A DNA stretch of 64,000 nucleotides from positions 52,569-116,568 of the IMG/VR virus record IMGVR_UViG_3300032770_000009; one strand, given 5' to 3'. The translations under genes were made by a program, and so were the position numbers. The stretch comes from a virus. Numbering within the stretch: the first letter of the stretch is position 1; each line of letters starts with the position of its first letter. Positions 21,506-35,097 of this stretch are shown in pieces. Below the pieces are notes generated by a model. It saw nothing but the letters and a program-made list of their open reading frames with translations. It had not been told where the DNA came from and ran no database searches.

Positions 21506-21841
21506 TCAGACCATGAACGGGCGGTAAGACAAGGTGTAGAAGTCATAGCCTACGGCCTTTACTTCTTCTACAGTCAGAATCTTACCCTCTGGTGGCCTGC
21601 CCTTAAGTTTGAAGCACAAGCACACATCTTCTAGCTTGTGGCTGTACTCTATGCGGTTAACTGGCACCGTGATGCCTAGCAGTTCAGTTAGTATCTGTGC
21701 TGTGGACTCATGTCCTATAGCGGAGATGATGTCATCACTGTAGATCTCGACAAGAGTTAGCGCATCTGCTAGAGTCCTGTCTAGTAGCCAGTACCTACCT
21801 GGTACGGTTACGATGGTGGTGTTAAGTAGAACTAGAGCCAT
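21506..21841 (-). CDS. acrIII-1: DUF1874 / AcrIII-1-type viral ring nuclease
   Basis: A 111-aa protein that matches the DUF1874 (STIV B116-like) family end to end: an N-terminal strand (LVLLNTTIVT), then SAIGHESTAQILTELLGITV, PVNRIE and RPPEGKILTVEE. In the characterised AcrIII-1 enzymes the His of the IGH(D/E)xT motif (H44 here) is the general acid that cleaves cyclic tetra-adenylate (cA4), and a Glu in the (P/L)EGK segment (E85 here) also lies at the active site. By degrading cA4 these enzymes switch off Csx1/Csm6-type effectors of type III CRISPR. The neighbours are small unknown genes. Activity here is inferred from motifs. Confidence 0.85.
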   Translation of the reverse strand: MALVLLNTTIVTVPGRYWLLDRTLADALTLVEIYSDDIISAIGHESTAQILTELLGITVPVNRIEYSHKLEDVCLCFKLKGRPPEGKILTVEEVKAVGYDFYTLSYRPFMV

Positions 21842-26124: not shown

Positions 26125-26153
26125 AAACTACATCACCGTTGCAGCCCTGTCAA
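26125..26153 (-). promoter_or_regulatory. promoter giving a leaderless transcript
   Basis: Minus strand TTGACA (26148-26153), 17 bp, TAGTTT (26125-26130), preceded by GTCCGAC. The expected +1 is the A of the ATG at 26118. Confidence 0.7.
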
Positions 26154-26564
26154 GTCGGACAATTCGGACAAAACGGGCAGAACCGATTCGGCTTTTTCCT
26201 GATGTGGGCATACACCATTATTAAGTTGCCTACCACAGTTACAATTAAAACACAAAATACGAAGGTCGTCAGGATAGTTATTGTCAACTATCCACTTGTA
26301 TATAGATTTACCTATTTTATGCTCTCTACGTTGCACAGCACCATCGTCATTTATGTGGTCTATGGTTAGGAAGCGGTTTTCTTCCTCTCCACAGCACGCA
26401 CAAAAAGCTCCGTAATGCTCTAGGACAGCGTTTCTTGTTCTTGCGGCTAATAAGCTGCGGCGCTTGTTTTCGCACTCTCTACAGCGAGAATAAGTTCCCT
26501 TAAGTTCTCCACCAGTGAAAGCTTCTAATGGTTTTATCTGTTTGCACACTCTACACAATCTCAT
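26133..26564 (-). CDS. HNH-type endonuclease
   Basis: 143 aa. N-terminal zinc knuckle (LCRVCKQIKPLEAF ... CRECENKRR), then an HNH-like core: CACCGEEENRFLTIDHINDDG, DDLRILCFNCNCGRQ. The His-Asn pair and paired CxxC fit the fold. Closely related in layout to the 31372-31776 protein. Likely a free-standing homing-type nuclease. It lies at the end of the late-type unit and overlaps the upstream gene by 14 nt; its end overlaps the promoter of the next gene. Confidence 0.75.
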   Translation of the reverse strand: MRLCRVCKQIKPLEAFTGGELKGTYSRCRECENKRRSLLAARTRNAVLEHYGAFCACCGEEENRFLTIDHINDDGAVQRREHKIGKSIYKWIVDNNYPDDLRILCFNCNCGRQLNNGVCPHQEKAESVLPVLSELSDLTGLQR

Positions 26565-26764: not shown

Positions 26765-28195
26765 TTAAATAACCAACTCAGCGTCAACTATGCCTGACTC
26801 AAGTATTAGTGAATCAGCTTGTAACGGCTGGTCTAACTGACGTGTTTTATCCGCTGCTGATTTGCCTAGGAACCGTTCCATAAATCCCTGTCTTGGTGCT
26901 TCTTCTGATGCTGTAACAGTCATAGAGAATGTATTTTTGCTGTTGTCTTGCTTGTTTTTTATCAGACGTCCTAGTCGGTCAATTTCGCTTGAAAGGTTAG
27001 GATCAGAGTAGCCGCCGCTTAAATCCTCTGCCATTTTCATGAAAAGTACCCTGTGAGTCTGCATTTCTATAAGTGCATCCTGTAGAGCTTCCAGTTGCGG
27101 CTTAGTTTTTACCTCAACCGGAATATTGTACAGACAAGTAGAATTAGGCTCAAACCCTGGGCATTTGTCCTTAAGAAAACATGTGTCGCATATTCTCATC
27201 GACTCAGAACGTATATTTATAACTGGCCTTGGCGGCTCGTCAGACATGAAATCTGAGTTTTTAGGAAGTATGTTTGTCATTATAGGCAGGGGTACCGCAC
27301 TGCGTTCTACTGGTGGTTTCATTCGCAGTGAAATATCCTGTGTGACAACTACAGGCACTATATTTTCCGGATCACTGCTATTCGTGTTCGCTGTGTTAGT
27401 AGTAACTCCATTGTTCAAAGACAATATATACTTGCTCCAAGACCAAGCTGAAAGTTTAAGCAACTCGTCCGCATCTCCGTCTTCTATCTTGGAGTAGTCG
27501 AATCCGTTATCGGTAAATAGTGTCCTGTGAGTTTTTGCAGCTCGGTCTTTATAAGATTTCGGATAGCGTTTAAGTTCTCTGCCGGTCCATACAAACAACT
27601 CACCGTAACGAGTAGTAGAAAGCCATGCGGTAGAAGACACTGAAGACCATCTGACCGCTTCTAAAAGTTTCTTAGATGTTATTCCTACGCCGTGCAGTTT
27701 AACGCCGTAGCGCTGAATCATCTGGTTAAACAAGGGAACGTTAGACATATCTCCGTGGATATCCTCTTGCGTTACTCCGACTAGAGTATAAGAAGAACAC
27801 AAGTCTTCCAGTTCTTCATTACCGTAAGCAGGATGCCATACCGGCATAAATTTGTCTTCCGGTAACGAGTTGTAAAATTCAGATCTTAACTGCTTTATAA
27901 CTGGAAGAGTTAACTGCTGTGCATCAAATTCTGCTACTAAATCAACTTGAGAAATATTATTGTTAACAAAACTCATGTATTCTGCTGCTGATTCGTAAAC
28001 TACCTCGAATACAGCGTCAGATTTAGATATAGACATAGATCCTGAGTCGAGAAGTTTCTTACCCGGGTACGACGGTACTTTCTTCTCGTTGCGCATTAAG
28101 TTGAAATAAGATAAAGATATAGGTAAGTTTCCCTGTTCAGCTAAAATATTTCTGAATTTTGGTATCTCACCGCCGCCGAAATACAAATCAGTCAT
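26765..28195 (-). CDS. TIM-barrel tRNA-guanine-transglycosylase-like protein with Cys tail
   Basis: A 476-aa protein. The N-terminal 270 residues (LLDSGSMSI.., VDLVAEFDAQQL, FMPVWHP, SYTLVGVTQEDI, KLHGVGITSKKLL.AVRWSSVSSTAWL) have the strand-by-strand look of the TGT/DpdA-like barrels found in phages, where the family exchanges guanine for modified bases in tRNA or DNA. The C-terminal part adds CDTCFLKDKC and GFEPNSTC, then a helical tail. The same kind of Cys module occurs in other phage proteins near the packaging genes. The assignment rests on motif feel alone; catalytic Asp residues cannot be fixed. Confidence 0.4.
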   Translation of the reverse strand: MTDLYFGGGEIPKFRNILAEQGNLPISLSYFNLMRNEKKVPSYPGKKLLDSGSMSISKSDAVFEVVYESAAEYMSFVNNNISQVDLVAEFDAQQLTLPVIKQLRSEFYNSLPEDKFMPVWHPAYGNEELEDLCSSYTLVGVTQEDIHGDMSNVPLFNQMIQRYGVKLHGVGITSKKLLEAVRWSSVSSTAWLSTTRYGELFVWTGRELKRYPKSYKDRAAKTHRTLFTDNGFDYSKIEDGDADELLKLSAWSWSKYILSLNNGVTTNTANTNSSDPENIVPVVVTQDISLRMKPPVERSAVPLPIMTNILPKNSDFMSDEPPRPVINIRSESMRICDTCFLKDKCPGFEPNSTCLYNIPVEVKTKPQLEALQDALIEMQTHRVLFMKMAEDLSGGYSDPNLSSEIDRLGRLIKNKQDNSKNTFSMTVTASEEAPRQGFMERFLGKSAADKTRQLDQPLQADSLILESGIVDAELVI

Positions 28196-28707
28196 TAGTC
28201 CCAGTCCCTGTCTTCGTCCAGTTTATCAAGTCTTCTGTCCATAGCCTTAAGCTGTGCCTGCTTTTCTGCTGCCTCCGCGAGCTGTGACCATTCGCTTTGT
28301 GCATGTTCAAAATCAGGACGCCATTTAGGCATAGCATACTGAGCATGACTAAATGTCAGCACGTTGAATCCGTTATTAAGCATTGCTACAGACGCACTCG
28401 GAGACGGCTCTATAACTAACTCTATCTTGTAGCCTCTATTTCGCAGAGAATTAAGTTGCTGTATTTTCCTGTCAGAATCAGATAACCAGTGCCGTTGGCC
28501 GTCGTTGTATTCTACAGCGGTCTGTATATTAAGCGCTTCAATTGACAGCCAGTGATCAAGCTTCTTTCGATCTTGGTCAGAATAGAGAAGAATGTTGAAA
28601 TTCTCTTTTAAAGAATGATACAAAGCTATTCCGGTATGAATAGGAACGGCGGCTAAAGGCTTCATTAGAACACCTTCAACCGCCATTGCAACCGATGATA
28701 CTGGCAC
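28195..28707 (-). CDS. HAD-like protein with changed nucleophile (170 aa)
   Basis: Reads like a HAD/PNKP-type domain: AVEGVL in place of D-x-D-G (residues 9-14), ILLYSDQD as motif II, and LVIEPSPSASVAMLNNGFNVLTF before the Pro/Trp-rich end. Asp is replaced by Val and Glu at motif I, so it is probably not a phosphatase. Located in the late-type gene block, overlapping its neighbours by 1 nt. Confidence 0.4.
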   Translation of the reverse strand: MPVSSVAMAVEGVLMKPLAAVPIHTGIALYHSLKENFNILLYSDQDRKKLDHWLSIEALNIQTAVEYNDGQRHWLSDSDRKIQQLNSLRNRGYKIELVIEPSPSASVAMLNNGFNVLTFSHAQYAMPKWRPDFEHAQSEWSQLAEAAEKQAQLKAMDRRLDKLDEDRDWD

Positions 28708-29048
28708 TACTTACCCTTAGATAGCATCTGCTGGATCTGAGCATTCTGCTGAGCATCAGTCATACGCTGTGCCATTTGCATCTGAAGAGACACAGTAGCA
28801 TTAGCAGATAGCATAGCTGTTTCCTGAATCTGAATGTCCATAAGCAAAGTTGACAAAGATGATTTTATTTCCTGAGCAGTAGGCTTGCGTTTAGGATTAA
28901 CAGGAACGTTTATATCCGCTTCTAGGGTATAGTTACCCTCTTCGTCTACAAGAACTAAGAAAGCAGTACGGTGAGTGAATTCCTCATCTGCCTTAGCTAC
29001 CTCCTTTTTTGGTTCTTCTTTATTCTGTCCGAGTAAAACTGCGGCCAT
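28707..29048 (-). CDS. protein (113 aa), unknown
   Basis: Lys/Glu-rich N-terminus, beta segment (FLVLVDEEGNYTLEADINVPV), then a long Gln/Met/Ala-rich helix. Start overlaps the upstream gene by 29 nt. No family recognised. Confidence 0.65.
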   Translation of the reverse strand: MAAVLLGQNKEEPKKEVAKADEEFTHRTAFLVLVDEEGNYTLEADINVPVNPKRKPTAQEIKSSLSTLLMDIQIQETAMLSANATVSLQMQMAQRMTDAQQNAQIQQMLSKGK

Positions 29049-29316
29049 AACCGTATGTCTCCTTGTCTAGTGGTGTTCCGAACCTGCTGAAAGATCTTTC
29101 ACGCATGTCATAGTGGTTCTGGGTTATATCTCTGAACATAGCATATTGGCTCATGTCAAAGTTCCTGATTTTAATTTCAGCTATATTATCAAACTTTTTT
29201 GAATGCTTGTCTAGAAATTTGAATAATTTGTTTCTGTTACTATCTAGTATCATGCGTGCTTTTAGATATAGATATGCTTCTAACACTTCAAGTGTGCGAT
29301 ACTGCTTATACATCAT
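29020..29316 (-). CDS. protein (98 aa), unknown
   Basis: Start at 29316 (MMYKQYRTLEV) overlaps the stop of the preceding gene by a few bases; a longer in-frame version would lie wholly within that gene. Basic and helical (LKARMILDSNRNKLFKFLDKHSKK). No family recognised. Confidence 0.65.
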   Translation of the reverse strand: MMYKQYRTLEVLEAYLYLKARMILDSNRNKLFKFLDKHSKKFDNIAEIKIRNFDMSQYAMFRDITQNHYDMRERSFSRFGTPLDKETYGYGRSFTRTE

Positions 29317-29833
29317 AGTTATATCCGAATGCTTCTGACGCCTTCTTTTGCTGTACGTGCTGATGGACGGGACAGAATTGGCAAAGATAGATGGAAGGTC
29401 GATGACGCGAATCCATTCCCTCTGCCTTACGCTCTGCTTTAGTATCTGGTTGCAGTCTTTTCTTTTCCGACATGTAATCTTCGCAGTTAAGACGGCGGCC
29501 ATGGTCTACTCTCCAGCATTTCATGGCGTCAACTGAGAAATTGTCTTTAGTGTCATAGAAAGTTTGACCGAAACCAGCACCTTCGCCGGGAGTAGTAAAT
29601 TCTGATGCGAGTTTGTTAAGAATGTCATCTTTGTGCGCAATCCAGTCTGATTGCTCTATTCTTCCTACTCTGACGTCACCATGGAGCTTTTCACCAGAAG
29701 GAGTAAGATGCTCAGATTCTTTCATTCTGAGCCATGTATCACCACGTGGATCACCAGAGTAAGGAGGTAATTCTTCTACTGAACGGCAAGTAGAACATAT
29801 TAGCAGTCGTATAGGCTGCTTCATGTCTTCCAT
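29306..29833 (-). CDS. zinc-binding conserved phage protein (175 aa)
   Basis: Start at 29833 is coupled to the previous stop (TAATG), with GAGG upstream. N-terminal CSTCRSVEELPP, a middle FYDTKDNFSVDAMKCWRVDH and C-terminal LCQFCPVHQHVQQ give CxxC...C...CxxC. I recognise this layout from proteins beside the packaging and portal genes of large phages, but know no function. Sits directly downstream of the Acb2-like gene. Confidence 0.65.
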   Translation of the reverse strand: MEDMKQPIRLLICSTCRSVEELPPYSGDPRGDTWLRMKESEHLTPSGEKLHGDVRVGRIEQSDWIAHKDDILNKLASEFTTPGEGAGFGQTFYDTKDNFSVDAMKCWRVDHGRRLNCEDYMSEKKRLQPDTKAERKAEGMDSRHRPSIYLCQFCPVHQHVQQKKASEAFGYNYDV

Positions 29834-30060
29834 TAACTGTGCCTCGCTATAGAGCTGTTTGCCCACATAATGGCTTCTTCTACCTTCATGATAGCCAATG
29901 AACGCTCACGACCGTCAGGACAGCACTTAGCAATAAGACTGGCTAATACAAGACCCATTTTACGAATAGACTGGTATTTTTCAGACTGGTCGCCTACAGG
30001 GGGATGATAAGTGAATCTGTTAAACAAATCATCTTGTGATTCTTCTTTAGTTTGTTCCAT
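29833..30060 (-). CDS. acb2: Acb2-family cyclic-oligonucleotide sponge (anti-CBASS)
   Basis: A 75-aa protein with the hallmark of the Acb2/Tad1 hairpin family: FTYHPPVGDQSEKY (16-29), IR (32-33), LA..IAKCCPDGRERSLA (39-56), and the C-terminal helix VEEAIMWANSSIAR (60-73). Acb2 proteins are small hexameric helical hairpins that sequester cyclic dinucleotides and trinucleotides and so block CBASS abortive defence. The protein lacks the extra domain of the larger Tad1 proteins, so Acb2 fits better. It lies in a late-type operon coupled to the zinc protein gene. Activity is inferred. Confidence 0.85.
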   Translation of the reverse strand: MEQTKEESQDDLFNRFTYHPPVGDQSEKYQSIRKMGLVLASLIAKCCPDGRERSLAIMKVEEAIMWANSSIARHS

Positions 30061-30082
30061 TTAATACTCCTTAATAGTAAAC

Positions 30083-30460
30083 TTACTTTGTATCTGCTGC
30101 TGGTACTACAGGCTCTGGCTGAGTTGCTGTCTTTCCCTCAATCTTAAATTCTAAAGCCTTAAGATACGACAAGCCAGTTGCTACACGCTGCTTAGATGAC
30201 TTGAGAAGTACCTCTTCGTCTGTCTGCACATCAGTGCCAAGATTAGCTACTCTCTGTCGCAACATGTATAGATCTTGCTTAGCATCAGATTCCTCTGCCA
30301 GTGCGTCAGCATACAAATTACGTAACTGTACTTCTGTCTTACCTTCCAAGTCCTTTAACATTGCTGCCATACCTGAAAGGTCATGTTCTGTAGTTGTTAA
30401 CTGTGCTGGGGCGTCATGCGGAGTCCACAGTGAATTTGTTGCGTTTTCGTTTGTAGCCAT
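30083..30460 (-). CDS. coiled-coil protein (125 aa), unknown
   Basis: Long helical stretch with heptad spacing from about residue 30 to 110 (MLKDLEGKTEVQLRNLYADAL, DLYMLRQRVANLG), then a Pro/Thr tail. Ribosome site AGGGATTATCTATA is weak. Stop is followed by the Acb2-like gene. Confidence 0.65.
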   Translation of the reverse strand: MATNENATNSLWTPHDAPAQLTTTEHDLSGMAAMLKDLEGKTEVQLRNLYADALAEESDAKQDLYMLRQRVANLGTDVQTDEEVLLKSSKQRVATGLSYLKALEFKIEGKTATQPEPVVPAADTK

Positions 30461-30780
30461 TATAGATAATCCCTTTCAATATAGTTATCTAGAATATCTC
30501 TGTGTGGTAAGTTTATATACCATTCTATATTTGTATTACATATGTAACAAAGTAAACCGCGAATACACTTTCCGCAAGTTTCTCTACCAGGACAACAAGC
30601 GTGGTCGTGGTCAACAGATAAACGTCTACCATCTTCTTCTGGAGTTTTAGGGCATAAAGCGCAGTGGCCACCCTGAGATTCTAATATGGCGTCATATTCA
30701 TCTAAAGTCATTTTATAAAAATTTTTGAGATATTGCTTAGCGTGTTGTCTGTCTCTGTCTTCTTTAAGCTTATGAGGCAC
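30460..30780 (-). CDS. endonuclease VII-type HNH nuclease
   Basis: 106 aa. The recombination endonuclease VII core is clear: HCALCPKTPEEDGRRLSVDHDHACCPG and CIRGLLCYICNTNIEWY. Four Cys hold the zinc and the DHDH supplies catalytic His. A close relative is encoded at 63157-63504. Such genes act as free-standing homing nucleases. Overlaps neighbours by 1 nt on both sides, so it sits cleanly in the operon. Confidence 0.85.
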   Translation of the reverse strand: MPHKLKEDRDRQHAKQYLKNFYKMTLDEYDAILESQGGHCALCPKTPEEDGRRLSVDHDHACCPGRETCGKCIRGLLCYICNTNIEWYINLPHRDILDNYIERDYL

Positions 30781-31025
30781 TAGTGATAATCCTCATTATT
30801 CGCTCCTATTTCTTGTCCCCCTTTAGTACGATAGCTTCTACCGTCTGGAAGATATTTTATATCAGCTTCATTGAAACCATGCCAAATTCTGTCCATCTGC
30901 TTTCGTACATTAGCAGTGTCAGCATCATCGACATTAGCCCAGTTAGGGGCGGTGTCTTTGTATACGCCATCGTTGATGCCGTACTTAAGTTCATCATTAT
31001 TCGATCTGTGCGGGGCATATGTCAT
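30780..31025 (-). CDS. protein (81 aa), unknown
   Basis: Start taken at MTYAPHRSNN (31025), which leaves a short gap to the previous gene. Asp/Asn-rich. The C-terminus (LPDGRSYRTKGGQEI) shows no motif. Confidence 0.6.
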   Translation of the reverse strand: MTYAPHRSNNDELKYGINDGVYKDTAPNWANVDDADTANVRKQMDRIWHGFNEADIKYLPDGRSYRTKGGQEIGANNEDYH

Positions 31026-31027
31026 TG

Positions 31028-31384
31028 CTACCACCACATCCCATTCGGTCTGTTAGTTGAGTTTATTTCTCCCTGTGAACCAGAGAAGTTATTCCATTCA
31101 TCTGTATTTATTTCTGCGTCTTGCTGTAGCTTGTTTCCAAGTATGTCAACTACAGTTAATTCCTGATCACGATAACCGAATCTTGGAGGAAATTTTCTAG
31201 TAGTCATATTTCTCCGTATTTCAGAATCAGGAGTTAAAGGGTTTTGAGAGATCATAGCTTGAGCCTCTTTTTTGGCTTCTCCGTCTCCCTCTTGAAACAT
31301 GCGCTGATAATCTACAAGATCATTTATATTCTGCTGCCAGGGACGCATTCCTGCATCGTATATTGTCTGACTTACACGGTACAT
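31028..31384 (-). CDS. protein (118 aa), unknown; probable virion-associated
   Basis: Start at 31384 (MYRVSQTIYDAG) follows GTGGGGATTCC. Gln/Asn-rich, ends NSTNRPNGMWW. It lies in a run of low-complexity late genes. Overlaps the end of the HNH gene by 13 nt. Confidence 0.6.
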   Translation of the reverse strand: MYRVSQTIYDAGMRPWQQNINDLVDYQRMFQEGDGEAKKEAQAMISQNPLTPDSEIRRNMTTRKFPPRFGYRDQELTVVDILGNKLQQDAEINTDEWNNFSGSQGEINSTNRPNGMWW

Positions 31385-31776
31385 GGAATCCCCACTTCCT
31401 GATGCGGACAAACATCTAAAGTTCGTCTAGAGCAGTTACAGTTATAGCATTCTATAATTATATCGTCTGGTGCATTATCTCTAACCCATCGATACATGTT
31501 ACGTCCCACTTCTTCTCTATGCTGTTTTCCATCATTGTTCACATGAGAGATAGTTAAGAATGCAGGGTTATCTTCACCACAGCAAGCGCACTCTGAACCA
31601 TACATTTCTAACACATCATATACAACATCAGCATACAGGTCACTACTCTGAGAGCTTCTACATTCTTTACATCTAGACTGTACTCTCCCACGGTCGCCAC
31701 GTCTGTCAAATGCTCCGATAGGTTTTTCAATTTTACACTTGGAACAGACCTTAGTGTCAGCAACACGTAAGTCCAT
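31372..31776 (-). CDS. HNH-type endonuclease, paralogue of 26133 gene
   Basis: 134 aa: VCSKCKIEKPIGAF ... CKECRSSQ zinc knuckle, then CACCGEDNPAFLTISHVNNDG and IIIECYNCNCSRR. The His-Asn pair and CxxC spacing mirror the 26133-26564 protein. Probably a mobile homing-type nuclease. Confidence 0.7.
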   Translation of the reverse strand: MDLRVADTKVCSKCKIEKPIGAFDRRGDRGRVQSRCKECRSSQSSDLYADVVYDVLEMYGSECACCGEDNPAFLTISHVNNDGKQHREEVGRNMYRWVRDNAPDDIIIECYNCNCSRRTLDVCPHQEVGIPCTV

Positions 31777-32253
31777 CTACTTGTTCACCAGGCTCTCTAT
31801 AACTTTCTTGTTGTTGCCTGCGTGCTCTCCAAGTAACTCCATCGCCCTTATAGTAGAGTGTATCAAGGAATGCCCCGGCTGTCCACTTGGAGCATTTCTT
31901 CCCCTCATGCTAACTGGAGATACAGCTTCTGGCCTGGTTGCTGCTGGCATATTCCTCATCCTAGCAGGCTGTCCGCCTGGAGCATTAGGCATAGCCATAG
32001 TCTTAGAGACTTCGTAAGCCTGTGTCTTGTCTCTTTTATAAGATTGAGTAGGAGCCCCGCTGGAAAGTGTATCTCCCCAGTTCTGAGTCCAGTTCTGACC
32101 CTTTTCAGCATTAAGGCGTTTAACCATGTCACCTAGTTTTTCTCTAGGTGTCTGATCAGGAAGATGAGCCATGCCTTGAGTTACAGCAGAACCAGCCGCC
32201 AGTTCAGCATTTAGCTGGTTAGCAAGAGTAGACGGCTGCTTATTCCTGGCCAT
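31777..32253 (-). CDS. Arg/Pro/Gln-rich protein (158 aa)
   Basis: Basic, low-complexity middle (PNAPGGQPARMRNMPAATRP), helical ends. Composition like internal virion or tail proteins. No family recognised. Confidence 0.6.
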   Translation of the reverse strand: MARNKQPSTLANQLNAELAAGSAVTQGMAHLPDQTPREKLGDMVKRLNAEKGQNWTQNWGDTLSSGAPTQSYKRDKTQAYEVSKTMAMPNAPGGQPARMRNMPAATRPEAVSPVSMRGRNAPSGQPGHSLIHSTIRAMELLGEHAGNNKKVIESLVNK

Positions 32254-32255
32254 TG

Positions 32256-33608
32256 TTATTCTCCCTTAAATTGCCTTGGATTGATGTTTCGATTGGACTG
32301 ACCTTGAGGCTGCGGTGCCCTGCCCGATTCGATAGACTTAGCTTCTTTATTTACAGCATAAGCCTTAGCAAGATTTTTTACTCCGCCAATCTCAGCTTTT
32401 CCTATAGCTACCGCTCCCTCAGCTAAAGTTTTCGTCCCCTTAGCTACAGTTCTCCCGGCAGCACCAGCTATAGCACCTATATTGCTGTTAGATCCTCTTC
32501 TGTTACCGGCCCGTATTTCATCGTGGTGTGTTTCTGCTGTTCCCTTAGCTTTTTCGTATTTAGACTGAGCTTTTCCCAGTCTTCTGTCAGAGTTAGCAGC
32601 ACCAGCCGCACTTACAGCCTTTCTAGCAGCATGACCAACCGGACCCAGCCTCTTATCTGGCTTTTCTTTAGGTCCGTTAACTAGTCTATCCAGTGGTCCC
32701 TGCCTTTTAGAAGCATCTCTGGTTTCCTGCCACTGCGCTTCTTTTTTAGCTCTGAACTTAGCACTGCTGGCATGTGTTTTTTCCGCAACATCTAAGTTAC
32801 GTGCCGCTTTGACAGCTTTTCTCTTAGCTCTACTTGGTTCTAAACCAGACACAGCGTCAACGTTAGCCGATTCTACACTTTTAGCAGGTGCAGCAGATCT
32901 GCCTGATGTTCGTGACTGCTCCCTTTGACCTGCTATATCAGCTTTTGAATTGACTTTTACAGAACCAGATGGTTCTGATTTAGGTGCAGATGATTTAGAT
33001 GGTACTTTTGCACTTTGAGCCGATGGTCTTTCCCTGCCAGAATTAGCTACAGACAACGCTTCACTAGCATGCTGGTCAAATGATTTACCAACTGCAGGCT
33101 GCGGTCTTGTCGGTGCTGAAAACTGACGTGAATTTACAGGTGCTTCATGCGATGTCTCTCTAGCGCTAGAAATAGGACCAGCAGGGTAATCTGTAGTAAA
33201 ACTGACTCTTGATTTAGGCTGTGCGAAAGCTGGCCCCTTCTTACCAGAAGCTACTCCAGACTTAGCACTCTGCTGTCTAGGCGGTGTATCCCTTGGTGCC
33301 GCACTTTTAGTTCTGGCATCAGCGTCGTTGTTAGTGCTTGCTCCATGTATAGCGCTTTTAACACCATGCGATGTCATCTCTATAGCATAAGATTTAGCAG
33401 CAGATGGCTTCGCATCAGAAGCCGATGAACTTTTCCACTGAACTTTAACATTATTTTTTTCTGAAGGATTAGCAGTAAAACTAGGCTCAGATCTTGGCTG
33501 CTCAGCTCGCTTTTGCTTAGTTCTAACCGCCTTGTGAGATGACGCTATTTCTTTAGTATTAGCGCGGCTACGTGCTCTTTCACTTGGTGTCTGTGAATTA
33601 GCAGCCAT
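32256..33608 (-). CDS. Lys/Ala/Ser-rich basic protein (450 aa), histone-like
   Basis: Almost wholly low-complexity, rich in Ala, Lys, Ser, Arg and Pro with very few hydrophobic residues; composition resembles H1 or protamine tails. The C-terminal 120 residues hold an Ala/Gly-rich stretch. Could package or neutralise DNA in the capsid, or be a disordered virion component. Coupled to the next gene by a 1-nt overlap. Confidence 0.55.
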   Translation of the reverse strand: MAANSQTPSERARSRANTKEIASSHKAVRTKQKRAEQPRSEPSFTANPSEKNNVKVQWKSSSASDAKPSAAKSYAIEMTSHGVKSAIHGASTNNDADARTKSAAPRDTPPRQQSAKSGVASGKKGPAFAQPKSRVSFTTDYPAGPISSARETSHEAPVNSRQFSAPTRPQPAVGKSFDQHASEALSVANSGRERPSAQSAKVPSKSSAPKSEPSGSVKVNSKADIAGQREQSRTSGRSAAPAKSVESANVDAVSGLEPSRAKRKAVKAARNLDVAEKTHASSAKFRAKKEAQWQETRDASKRQGPLDRLVNGPKEKPDKRLGPVGHAARKAVSAAGAANSDRRLGKAQSKYEKAKGTAETHHDEIRAGNRRGSNSNIGAIAGAAGRTVAKGTKTLAEGAVAIGKAEIGGVKNLAKAYAVNKEAKSIESGRAPQPQGQSNRNINPRQFKGE

Positions 33609-33973
33609 TATTTCATTCCTACTTTAGCTCTAACAGCTTTTCTTTCAGCGATCTTAGATTTCATGACGCCCAGTGCTGTATGCTTACCTTTAGACGGAGC
33701 ATTAGAAGAGGTAGTCATATTCTTTGCTACACTTGCCTTTGTTGCCGGTGCAGCATGCTTACCTGTAGCAGCACCCTTTGAATGCTTGCCGCCGAATTCA
33801 TATCTACCAGGGCCAGTATCAGTTTTACCTGCTGCTCTGTGCTTGCCGCTGTATAATTCATTTTTTGGCTTAGCTGGTGCGCTGCCCTTTAATTTGTTTG
33901 CTGCCGCTCTTGCCTTAGCACCTATTTTTGACGGGCCACTTGCTAAAGCCTTCTGTGCTTTACTTTTTGCCAT
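33608..33973 (-). CDS. Lys/Ala-rich basic protein (121 aa), histone H1-like
   Basis: Starts MAKSKAQKALASGPSKIGAK. Repeated GKH motifs: SGKHRAAGK, GGKHSKGAATGKHAAPAT, SKGKHTALG. Strongly basic and disordered. Pairs with the larger basic protein next to it. Confidence 0.6.
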   Translation of the reverse strand: MAKSKAQKALASGPSKIGAKARAAANKLKGSAPAKPKNELYSGKHRAAGKTDTGPGRYEFGGKHSKGAATGKHAAPATKASVAKNMTTSSNAPSKGKHTALGVMKSKIAERKAVRAKVGMK

Positions 33974-33985
33974 TGTATCTCCCTG

Positions 33986-34588
33986 CTACATCACATACGA
34001 AGGTAGCATCTTATATAGTCTAGCCTTGGCGTCTGGATCTGTAAGAACCACTGGATTCTTAGCAGGATCAACGCCGTAGTATCTTGCTTCGTTCATTTGC
34101 TGTGGTGCCCCAGCAGCACCAGTAAGTTTGCCTTGGTGTGCTAGTCTTTCAATAGGAGATCCACGGAAAACAGCACGTTTAACATCCATAGTGACAACCC
34201 CGTCGTGATGTGATGAAACATACTTAGCTTCTGCTTTCAGTCTCATGTCAGGCTGGAAATCAACAGGCCAGAAATAGTCCTTTCCGTCAATCTTAGACCC
34301 TTTGTGAACACCACGTTGATAAGGTCTCTTGTTAAGTTGATTACCCAGAGCCTCAAGTAGTTTATCTTGCTGCCGGTCCCATGACATAGACCCTAGATAT
34401 CCGTCTGGATACTGAGCGTCATTAGTAGCCATGGAACGTCGAGCATCTAACTGGTCATGATACCGTATAGCATTACGTGCGTAAAGACCGCCACCCGCAC
34501 CCATAGCATGACTGTACGGCTGGTTGTATCCCTCATTAGGCACATACCAATTAGAATTATTTCCTGGTCCGCCACCCATAGTAGCCAT
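33986..34588 (-). CDS. Gly/Asn/Tyr-rich protein (200 aa), unknown
   Basis: N-terminal Gly/Asn-rich 35 residues, then a globular-looking part with HH, HQG and KNPV motifs. No family recognised; context suggests a virion-associated role. Confidence 0.6.
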   Translation of the reverse strand: MATMGGGPGNNSNWYVPNEGYNQPYSHAMGAGGGLYARNAIRYHDQLDARRSMATNDAQYPDGYLGSMSWDRQQDKLLEALGNQLNKRPYQRGVHKGSKIDGKDYFWPVDFQPDMRLKAEAKYVSSHHDGVVTMDVKRAVFRGSPIERLAHQGKLTGAAGAPQQMNEARYYGVDPAKNPVVLTDPDAKARLYKMLPSYVM

Positions 34589-35097
34589 TATCTGTACACA
34601 TTCTGTGATTTGTCTCCTTGACGCTGTGGTCCTGTCCCCTCTTTGTATTGGTAATCATGCACCACGTCCCATGGACCCTTAGATTTCCCAGGGAATCCAA
34701 GCCATGCGTAAATAGGTCTATCTAATTCTTTATAGGCTAAAGCTCTATGATGTCCGTCCATAATCATAGCTGTCTTATTAGAACGCTGTATCATGACAAC
34801 CGGCTTTATGCCTTCACCTTTTTTATCAGCCTGCTTGATTCTTCTCTTGAATAAGTTAACCTTCTCTGGCTGATGTGATGCTCTCCAAGAATTCTTTTCG
34901 TCAAAATCAGTTCTCTGCAAGGGAACTTCTACAGGACCCTTCCACTTGACACCGTGAACCCAGTCAACGGCGTCTTTAGGATAATCTTCAGTTAACTGGT
35001 CGTAAACGGCATCAGCTACTTTTTTGGCTGGTTTTCTGCGCATGCTTGAAGAGCTGCTGTTACTTTTAAACTGCGGGCCTAGTAGCTGTGATTTCAT
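34588..35097 (-). CDS. ParB-like (ParBc-fold) protein (169 aa)
   Basis: Residues 55-135 match the ParB N-terminal/sulfiredoxin-like fold: VPLQRTDFDEKN, KGEGIKPVVMIQ, AMIMDGHHRALAYKELDRPIYAWL. The GHHR in place of GxxRxxA of chromosomal ParB is as in many phage proteins of this fold. It lacks the helix-turn-helix that reads parS, so it is unlikely to be the partner of the parS site here. Basic N-terminal tail. Confidence 0.7.
   Translation of the reverse strand: MKSQLLGPQFKSNSSSSSMRRKPAKKVADAVYDQLTEDYPKDAVDWVHGVKWKGPVEVPLQRTDFDEKNSWRASHQPEKVNLFKRRIKQADKKGEGIKPVVMIQRSNKTAMIMDGHHRALAYKELDRPIYAWLGFPGKSKGPWDVVHDYQYKEGTGPQRQGDKSQNVYR

What the first reader, a model, noticed from the sequence alone, without database searches (positions are those of the whole stretch)
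29833..30060. Acb2-family cyclic-nucleotide sponge, a second anti-signalling gene
The small helical hairpin signature (YHPP..DQ..Y, CCPDGRERS, MWAN..IAR) is characteristic of Acb2, which sequesters CBASS cyclic dinucleotides and trinucleotides. Together with the ring nuclease the phage would counter two second-messenger immune systems. It lies in a late-type operon rather than an early region, which is unusual for an anti-defence gene.
Basis: partly seen in the sequence, partly recalled or inferred. Interest (0 to 1): 0.78.

Follow-up and report, generated by a model that had tools for sequence, protein, structure and literature searches.

The report
Acb2/Tad1-type hairpin sponge in a phage
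The 75-residue phage protein belongs by sequence to the known Acb2/Tad1 family that soaks up bacterial alarm molecules; it is an ordinary member, except for one unusual change near the ligand-binding region and an unusual place in the phage genome.

Summary
The ORF at 29833-30060 (minus strand, 75 aa) is real and belongs to the Acb2/Tad1 hairpin family: PF24729, 66.3 bits against a cut-off of 27. Its AlphaFold model has the Acb2 protomer layout; T4 Acb2 is its top, though not significant, Foldseek match. Its closest solved relatives are 'Acb2 homolog 43' and the Tad1 hairpin; T4 Acb2 is more distant. Residues aligned with T4's tested hexamer contacts are kept. The dinucleotide pocket is only partly kept (Y18 and R33 match Y8 and K23; H11, R79 and F82 are not matched). 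It alone carries Met58 where 79 of 81 relatives have Thr; T68M at the aligned T4 position is reported to weaken binding. Cyclic-nucleotide binding is likely, but ligand choice is unproven. A ring-nuclease gene (PF08960) lies 8 kb away. 'Late-type operon' is not supported: the gene follows replication and recombination genes. Twelve of thirteen BRock-like relatives carry exactly one hairpin gene, in eleven directly after terminase. The window phage and its closest relative carry it in another slot, about 52 kb from terminase. New member of a known kind, with testable twists.

The parts
29833..30060 (-). acb2/tad1-type hairpin gene, 75 aa; short helix 9-14, long helices 25-46 and 51-74
   Evidence: PF24729 66.3 bits; AlphaFold2 pLDDT 84
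30067..30072 (-). Shine-Dalgarno AAGGAG of the hairpin gene
   Evidence: sequence read directly
29887..29889 (-). codon for Met58, where 79 of 81 distinct relatives have Thr; aligned with T4 Acb2 T68 and PaP2 T74
   Evidence: T68M reported to lower T4 Acb2 affinity (PMC12657230)
29306..29866 (-). downstream ORF, overlaps the hairpin gene by 34 nt; conserved in BRock-like phages
30083..30460 (-). upstream ORF of unknown function, also next to the hairpin gene in the closest relative (L151)
30460..30780 (-). endonuclease VII-like gene two genes upstream
   Evidence: PF02945 64.4 bits
26765..28195 (-). TGT-like gene (PHROG 887, queuine tRNA-ribosyltransferase), conserved downstream marker of the slot
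21506..21841 (-). AcrIII-1/STIV_B116-family ring nuclease, 111 aa, with SAIGHEST motif
   Evidence: PF08960 88.2 bits; PDB relatives 2j6b, 2x4i, 6scf

Best explanation
The protein is a stand-alone Acb2/Tad1-type hairpin sponge. It most likely assembles into a hexamer and sequesters cyclic oligonucleotide alarm molecules without cutting them, so that effectors of CBASS, or of type III CRISPR systems that use cA3, are not switched on. Family membership and the protomer layout are shown here by computation. Hexamer formation and sponge function are inferred from conserved contact residues and from characterised relatives. Which ligands it binds is open: I expect trinucleotide binding to be more likely kept than dinucleotide binding, because most of the T4 dinucleotide contacts are absent and Met58 is unusual; that part is a guess.
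For: PF24729 at 66.3 bits, far over its cut-off of 27. A family profile finds PDB 9ptq 'Acb2 homolog 43' (E 3e-7), the Tad1 hairpins (E 5e-4) and, weakly, T4 Vs.4. Profile-profile comparison with T4-like Acb2 gives 88% probability, E 3e-6, in the same register. The predicted fold is a short helix plus two long antiparallel helices, matching the published description of the Acb2 protomer (PMC10419184). Foldseek ranks T4 Vs.4 first of 350,542 chains, and residues 18-74 align to 8-84 of 7UQ2 and 11-90 of 8H2X. T4 hexamer-contact residues L29, A66, A73, A77 (tested in PMC10097602) correspond to L39, A56, A63, A67 here; A56 is kept in 81 of 81 relatives and A67 in 80 of 81. Cyclic-dinucleotide contacts Y8 and K23 correspond to Y18 (73 of 81) and R33 (81 of 81). 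Twelve of thirteen BRock-like relatives keep one copy, the exception being a 35.8-kb fragment, which points to a selected function.
Against: No binding data. The Foldseek E-value is not significant (1.1) and the VIA Z of 6.0 does not stand out from unrelated helical hairpins. T4 contacts H11, R79 and F82 correspond to P21, S69 and A72. T68M at the aligned T4 position is described as lowering affinity (PMC12657230, legend), although T4-like homologues vary there (T/D/E/Q). The residues credited with trinucleotide binding could not be checked in the papers held.
Confidence: 0.8

Rival explanations
1. The dinucleotide pocket has been lost or retuned (Met58), as reported for a T4-like phage with T68M. 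The protein would then bind only trinucleotides such as cA3, or a different set, and might avoid triggering Panoptes-type guard systems. With the cA4-cleaving ring nuclease it would then cover two messengers of type III CRISPR rather than two separate immune systems.
For: Met58 is unique: Thr in 79 of 81 relatives and in all eight distinct BRock-like hairpins. T68M in phage Bas35 is reported to lower T4 Acb2 affinity, and three naturally Panoptes-resistant T4-like phages carry acb1 or acb2 loss-of-function changes (PMC12657230). A T68M-type helix 2 occurs unchanged in 18 phage records. AcrIII-1 degrades cA4 (PMC7213978).
Against: The aligned position is variable (T/D/E/Q) in T4-like Acb2, so its role may differ between subfamilies. 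Met58 may simply be tolerated. Host defences are unknown.
Confidence: 0.3
2. The hairpin has been co-opted for a structural or packaging role, since in most relatives its gene sits between terminase and portal.
For: In 11 of 11 hairpin-bearing BRock-like records outside the window/L151 pair the gene lies about 0.5-1.1 kb after terminase. It is beside portal or tail genes in Gordonia Chidiebere and cyanophage S-2L.
Against: In the window and in L151 it sits about 52 kb away from terminase. In mycobacteriophage CRB1 and Gordonia Anon it lies beside thymidylate synthase, near DNA polymerase. The hexamer positions are conserved.
Confidence: 0.07
3. It acts like Tad1 and also captures gcADPR of Thoeris.
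For: The sequence of helix 2 is nearer to the Tad1 hairpin than to T4 Acb2.
Against: It lacks the N-terminal beta-sheet domain of Tad1 that helps form the gcADPR pocket (PMC12043709); the ORF is only 75 aa.
Confidence: 0.05

Closest known systems
Acb2 homolog 43 (PDB 9ptq)
   Same: Stand-alone hairpin of similar size (76 aa); best profile match among solved structures (E 3e-7); shares the P.GRE.S motif and the EEA of helix 2
   Different: End of helix 2 differs (FFATKAAA for MWANSSIA); Thr instead of Met58; its publication could not be found in the library
Acb2 / Vs.4 of phage T4 (7UQ2) and Acb2 of phage PaP2 (8H2X)
   Same: Same helical layout and register; Y18=Y8/Y11, R33=K23/K26, Ala hexamer contacts; stand-alone sponge gene
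   Different: Different PHROG (717 for T4 as stated in PMC10097602; 1454 here); T4 contacts H11, R79, F82 not kept; Met58 instead of Thr
Tad1 (CbTad1 7uav/8kbf and others)
   Same: Helix 2 motif SRE..ALT..EEA.MW.N (E 5e-4)
   Different: No N-terminal beta-sheet domain here, so the Tad1 gcADPR pocket is absent
Hairpin annotated 'cyclic nucleotide inhibitor' in mycobacteriophage Balomoji (gene 102)
   Same: Same family, already named for this function by annotators
   Different: Only 31% identical; from a different phage group

Membership tests
Acb2/Tad1 hairpin domain (PF24729) | Whole-domain profile match over the curated cut-off | tested here: met
   66.3 bits against 27, model positions 1-58 of 58
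Acb2 (anti-CBASS 2) | Small stand-alone protein: short N-terminal helix plus two long antiparallel helices | tested here: met
   75 aa; helices 9-14, 25-46, 51-74, long helices at pLDDT above 90; layout as described in PMC10419184
Acb2 (anti-CBASS 2) | Fold comparison with solved Acb2 | tested here: inconclusive
   T4 Vs.4 is top Foldseek hit but E 1.1, TM 0.58; VIA Z 6.0, 2.3 A over 57 residues, tied with unrelated hairpins
Acb2 (anti-CBASS 2) | Homohexamer | tested here: inconclusive
   Assembly not predictable here; positions of T4 L29, A66, A73, A77 are L39, A56, A63, A67
Acb2 (anti-CBASS 2) | T4 cyclic-dinucleotide contacts Y8, H11, K23, R79, F82 | tested here: inconclusive
   Y18 and R33 kept or conservative; P21, S69, A72 differ; PaP2 Acb2, which binds cGAMP, also has Ala at the F82 position
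Acb2 (anti-CBASS 2) | Binds and sequesters cyclic di-/trinucleotides | not testable with these tools
   Needs binding assays
Tad1 | N-terminal beta-sheet domain fused to the C-terminal hairpin | tested here: not met
   The 75-aa ORF has only about 16 residues before the hairpin and no strands in the model
AcrIII-1 ring nuclease (neighbour 21506-21841) | DUF1874/STIV_B116 profile and active-site His | tested here: met
   PF08960 88.2 bits over 26; His in SAIGHEST aligned with GH of 2x4i/2j6b; the H47A form of SIRV1 gp29 is inactive (PMC7213978); activity itself not tested

The most novel reading that the evidence does not exclude
In this phage lineage a sponge gene is a fixed gene whose sequence and genomic slot have been swapped, and the window copy has lost or retuned its dinucleotide pocket (Met58). 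It would work with a cA4-specific ring nuclease as a cA3-plus-cA4 pair against type III CRISPR, and would avoid Panoptes-like guards.
Probability: 0.15. Interest if true: 0.55.

Novelty: new member of a known kind. Interest (0 to 1): 0.33.

Why it matters
It adds a divergent sponge from a 116-kb phage related to Streptomyces phages, a lineage in which nearly every relative keeps one hairpin gene although its place differs. Met58 makes a direct test possible: does a natural substitution at the T4 T68 position separate dinucleotide from trinucleotide binding? The pairing with an AcrIII-1-type ring nuclease was seen in none of 53 other records tested, mostly hairpin carriers.

Tried and rejected
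Tad2 (PF11195) was not found in the record. No stand-alone partner carrying the N-terminal domain seen fused to the hairpin in L035 was found in the loci held. NCBIfam gave no match for the hairpin, ring-nuclease or SpoVS-like proteins. A promoter scan of 28000-37500 gave 17 hits against 16.8 expected, so it says nothing about timing. A scan for relatives of the 186-aa downstream protein in IMG/VR found none by exact patterns, so synteny was traced through the TGT-like gene instead. One genome-contig scan found a single relative, in a Deltaproteobacteria MAG. The papers on trinucleotide binding by Acb2 and on Tad1 specificity are not held, so statements on trinucleotide binding are left as inference. 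I considered that the window and L151 copies share one origin at the same slot: the constrained tree is 46 log units worse, AU p 0.037, which is weak support for a swap; a common clade of the window copy with the BRock-like copies is not rejected (p 0.345). The co-option-for-packaging idea was set aside because the gene is found far from structural genes in several phages.

Full report
What is there. The minus-strand ORF 29833-30060 encodes MEQTKEESQDDLFNRFTYHPPVGDQSEKYQSIRKMGLVLASLIAKCCPDGRERSLAIMKVEEAIMWANSSIARHS, with an AAGGAG ribosome-binding site 6 nt before its ATG. The window is bases 52569-116568 of a 116,568-base virus record, which holds one PF24729 copy.

Family. Pfam PF24729 'Acb2/Tad1, hairpin domain' matches over its full length at 66.3 bits (cut-off 27). 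PHROG 1454 matches at E 3.5e-24 and has no assigned function; T4 Acb2 is in PHROG 717 (PMC10097602). A profile of 17 relatives finds, among solved structures, Acb2 homolog 43 (9ptq, E 3e-7), then Tad1 hairpins (E 5e-4), then T4 Vs.4 (E 0.63). The family is common: 313 of 50,697 phage records match at E 0.01, and 498 candidate IMG/VR stretches encode a relative. One annotator already calls a member 'cyclic nucleotide inhibitor' (Balomoji gene 102). It is therefore a member of a known family.

Structure. AlphaFold2 gives helices 9-14, 25-46 and 51-74, mean pLDDT 84 and above 90 in the long helices. Foldseek ranks three chains of T4 Vs.4 first, but at E 1.1 or worse; VIA gives Z 6.0 and 2.3 A over 57 residues to 7UQ2, not above unrelated hairpins. 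The fold comparison alone would not decide; its residue register agrees with the sequence alignments.

Functional residues, by position. T4 work (PMC10097602) names Y8 and F82 (stacking), Y8, H11, K23, R79 (polar contacts) and L29, A66, A73, A77 (hexamer contacts). The matching residues here are Y18, A72, P21, R33, S69 and L39, A56, A63, A67. In 81 distinct relatives Y18 is kept in 73, R33 in 81, A56 in 81, A67 in 80, A72 in 80. PaP2 Acb2 also has Ala at the F82 position. Position 58 is Thr in 79 of 81 relatives, Ile and Leu in one each, and Met only here. All eight distinct BRock-like hairpins read have Thr; Alone3 has a one-residue insertion just here and cannot be compared. T4 Acb2 T68 is the aligned residue; T68M in phage Bas35 is described as a mutation decreasing affinity, in the context of Panoptes-resistant phages (PMC12657230). 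Against over-reading: T4-like homologues carry T, D, E or Q there.

Genome context. The phage is related to Streptomyces phages BRock, GiJojo, LuckySocke, Alone3 and pSt2308 (DNA polymerase 42-43%, baseplate J 39-41% identity). Reading the minus strand, the hairpin gene comes after DnaB helicase, primase, SNF2 helicase, DNA polymerase, UvsX/RecA, exonuclease and endonuclease VII genes, and before a TGT-like gene and a LysM gene. That is downstream of replication and recombination genes, so 'late-type operon' is not supported, though expression time is unknown. Family members elsewhere lie beside thymidylate synthase near DNA polymerase, beside portal or tail genes, or beside toxin-antitoxin genes, so position does not tell the function.

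A fixed gene in two slots. Twelve of thirteen BRock-like records carry exactly one hairpin; the one without is a 35.8-kb fragment. In eleven it lies 0.5-1.1 kb after terminase, and before portal wherever portal was searched. In the window phage and its closest relative (L151, G036) it lies about 52 kb from terminase, between the same conserved neighbours 30083-30460 and 29306-29866. The two copies in this second slot are only 39% identical; the neighbours are 33% (upstream) and 54% (downstream) identical, so identity alone does not show a swap. In a tree, the BRock-like copies form one group (94/89; 99/89 with the Gordonia Chidiebere copy), the L151 copy groups with mycobacteriophage and Gordonia copies (98/90), which a 100/96 branch cuts off from most others, and the window copy lies with other IMG/VR copies. 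Holding window and L151 copies together costs 46 log units, AU p 0.037; holding window with BRock-like copies is not rejected, p 0.345. With 66 columns this is suggestive only. The retention of one hairpin per genome argues for a selected function.

Partner. A DUF1874/STIV_B116 gene lies at 21506-21841 (PF08960 88 bits; PDB relatives 2j6b, 2x4i, 6scf), with the GH motif aligned with that of its relatives; AcrIII-1 enzymes of this family cleave cA4 (PMC7213978). None of 41 records (mostly hairpin carriers) and none of 12 BRock-like records has PF08960 (some records are fragments, and BRock is represented in both sets), so the pairing is not a conserved cassette.

Mechanism. Most likely a hexameric sponge that sequesters cyclic oligonucleotides (0.8 for sponge function of some kind). 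Shown here: family, protomer layout, conservation. Inferred: hexamer, binding, effect on CBASS or cA3-using type III CRISPR. Unknown: ligand range. Met58 and the missing T4 contacts make a changed dinucleotide pocket possible (about 0.3).

Noticed in passing
21506-21841 (-): AcrIII-1-type ring nuclease (PF08960, 88 bits), absent from all 53 other hairpin-carrying or BRock-like records tested.
   Followed up: partly
35755-36024 (-): SpoVS-like 89-aa protein (recognised by eye), conserved in BRock-like phages at 53-56% identity; NCBIfam gave no match.
   Followed up: no
26765-28195 (-): TGT-like protein (PHROG 887), conserved in BRock-like phages; may act in 7-deazaguanine DNA or tRNA modification.
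   Followed up: no
L035:5719-6255: Hairpin fused behind an N-terminal domain with GGYYVVYKDGYASFSPAEAFEEGY; no stand-alone copy of that domain in the loci held.
   Followed up: partly
30460-30780, 36069-36575, 31372-31776, 26133-26564 (-): Several endonuclease VII/HNH-like genes scattered among the small genes (the last two judged by eye); in Alone3 one sits directly before the hairpin gene, which could have helped move it.
   Followed up: no
L136, L138, L139: T4-like acb2 copies that look frameshifted or truncated in IMG/VR, as would be expected if sponge loss is sometimes favoured.
   Followed up: no
G036:C1:8812-11468 (IMGVR_UViG_3300032893_000010): Portal gene of the closest relative matches in three pieces with a gap of about 0.9 kb inside one open frame, possibly an intein or other insert.
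   Followed up: no
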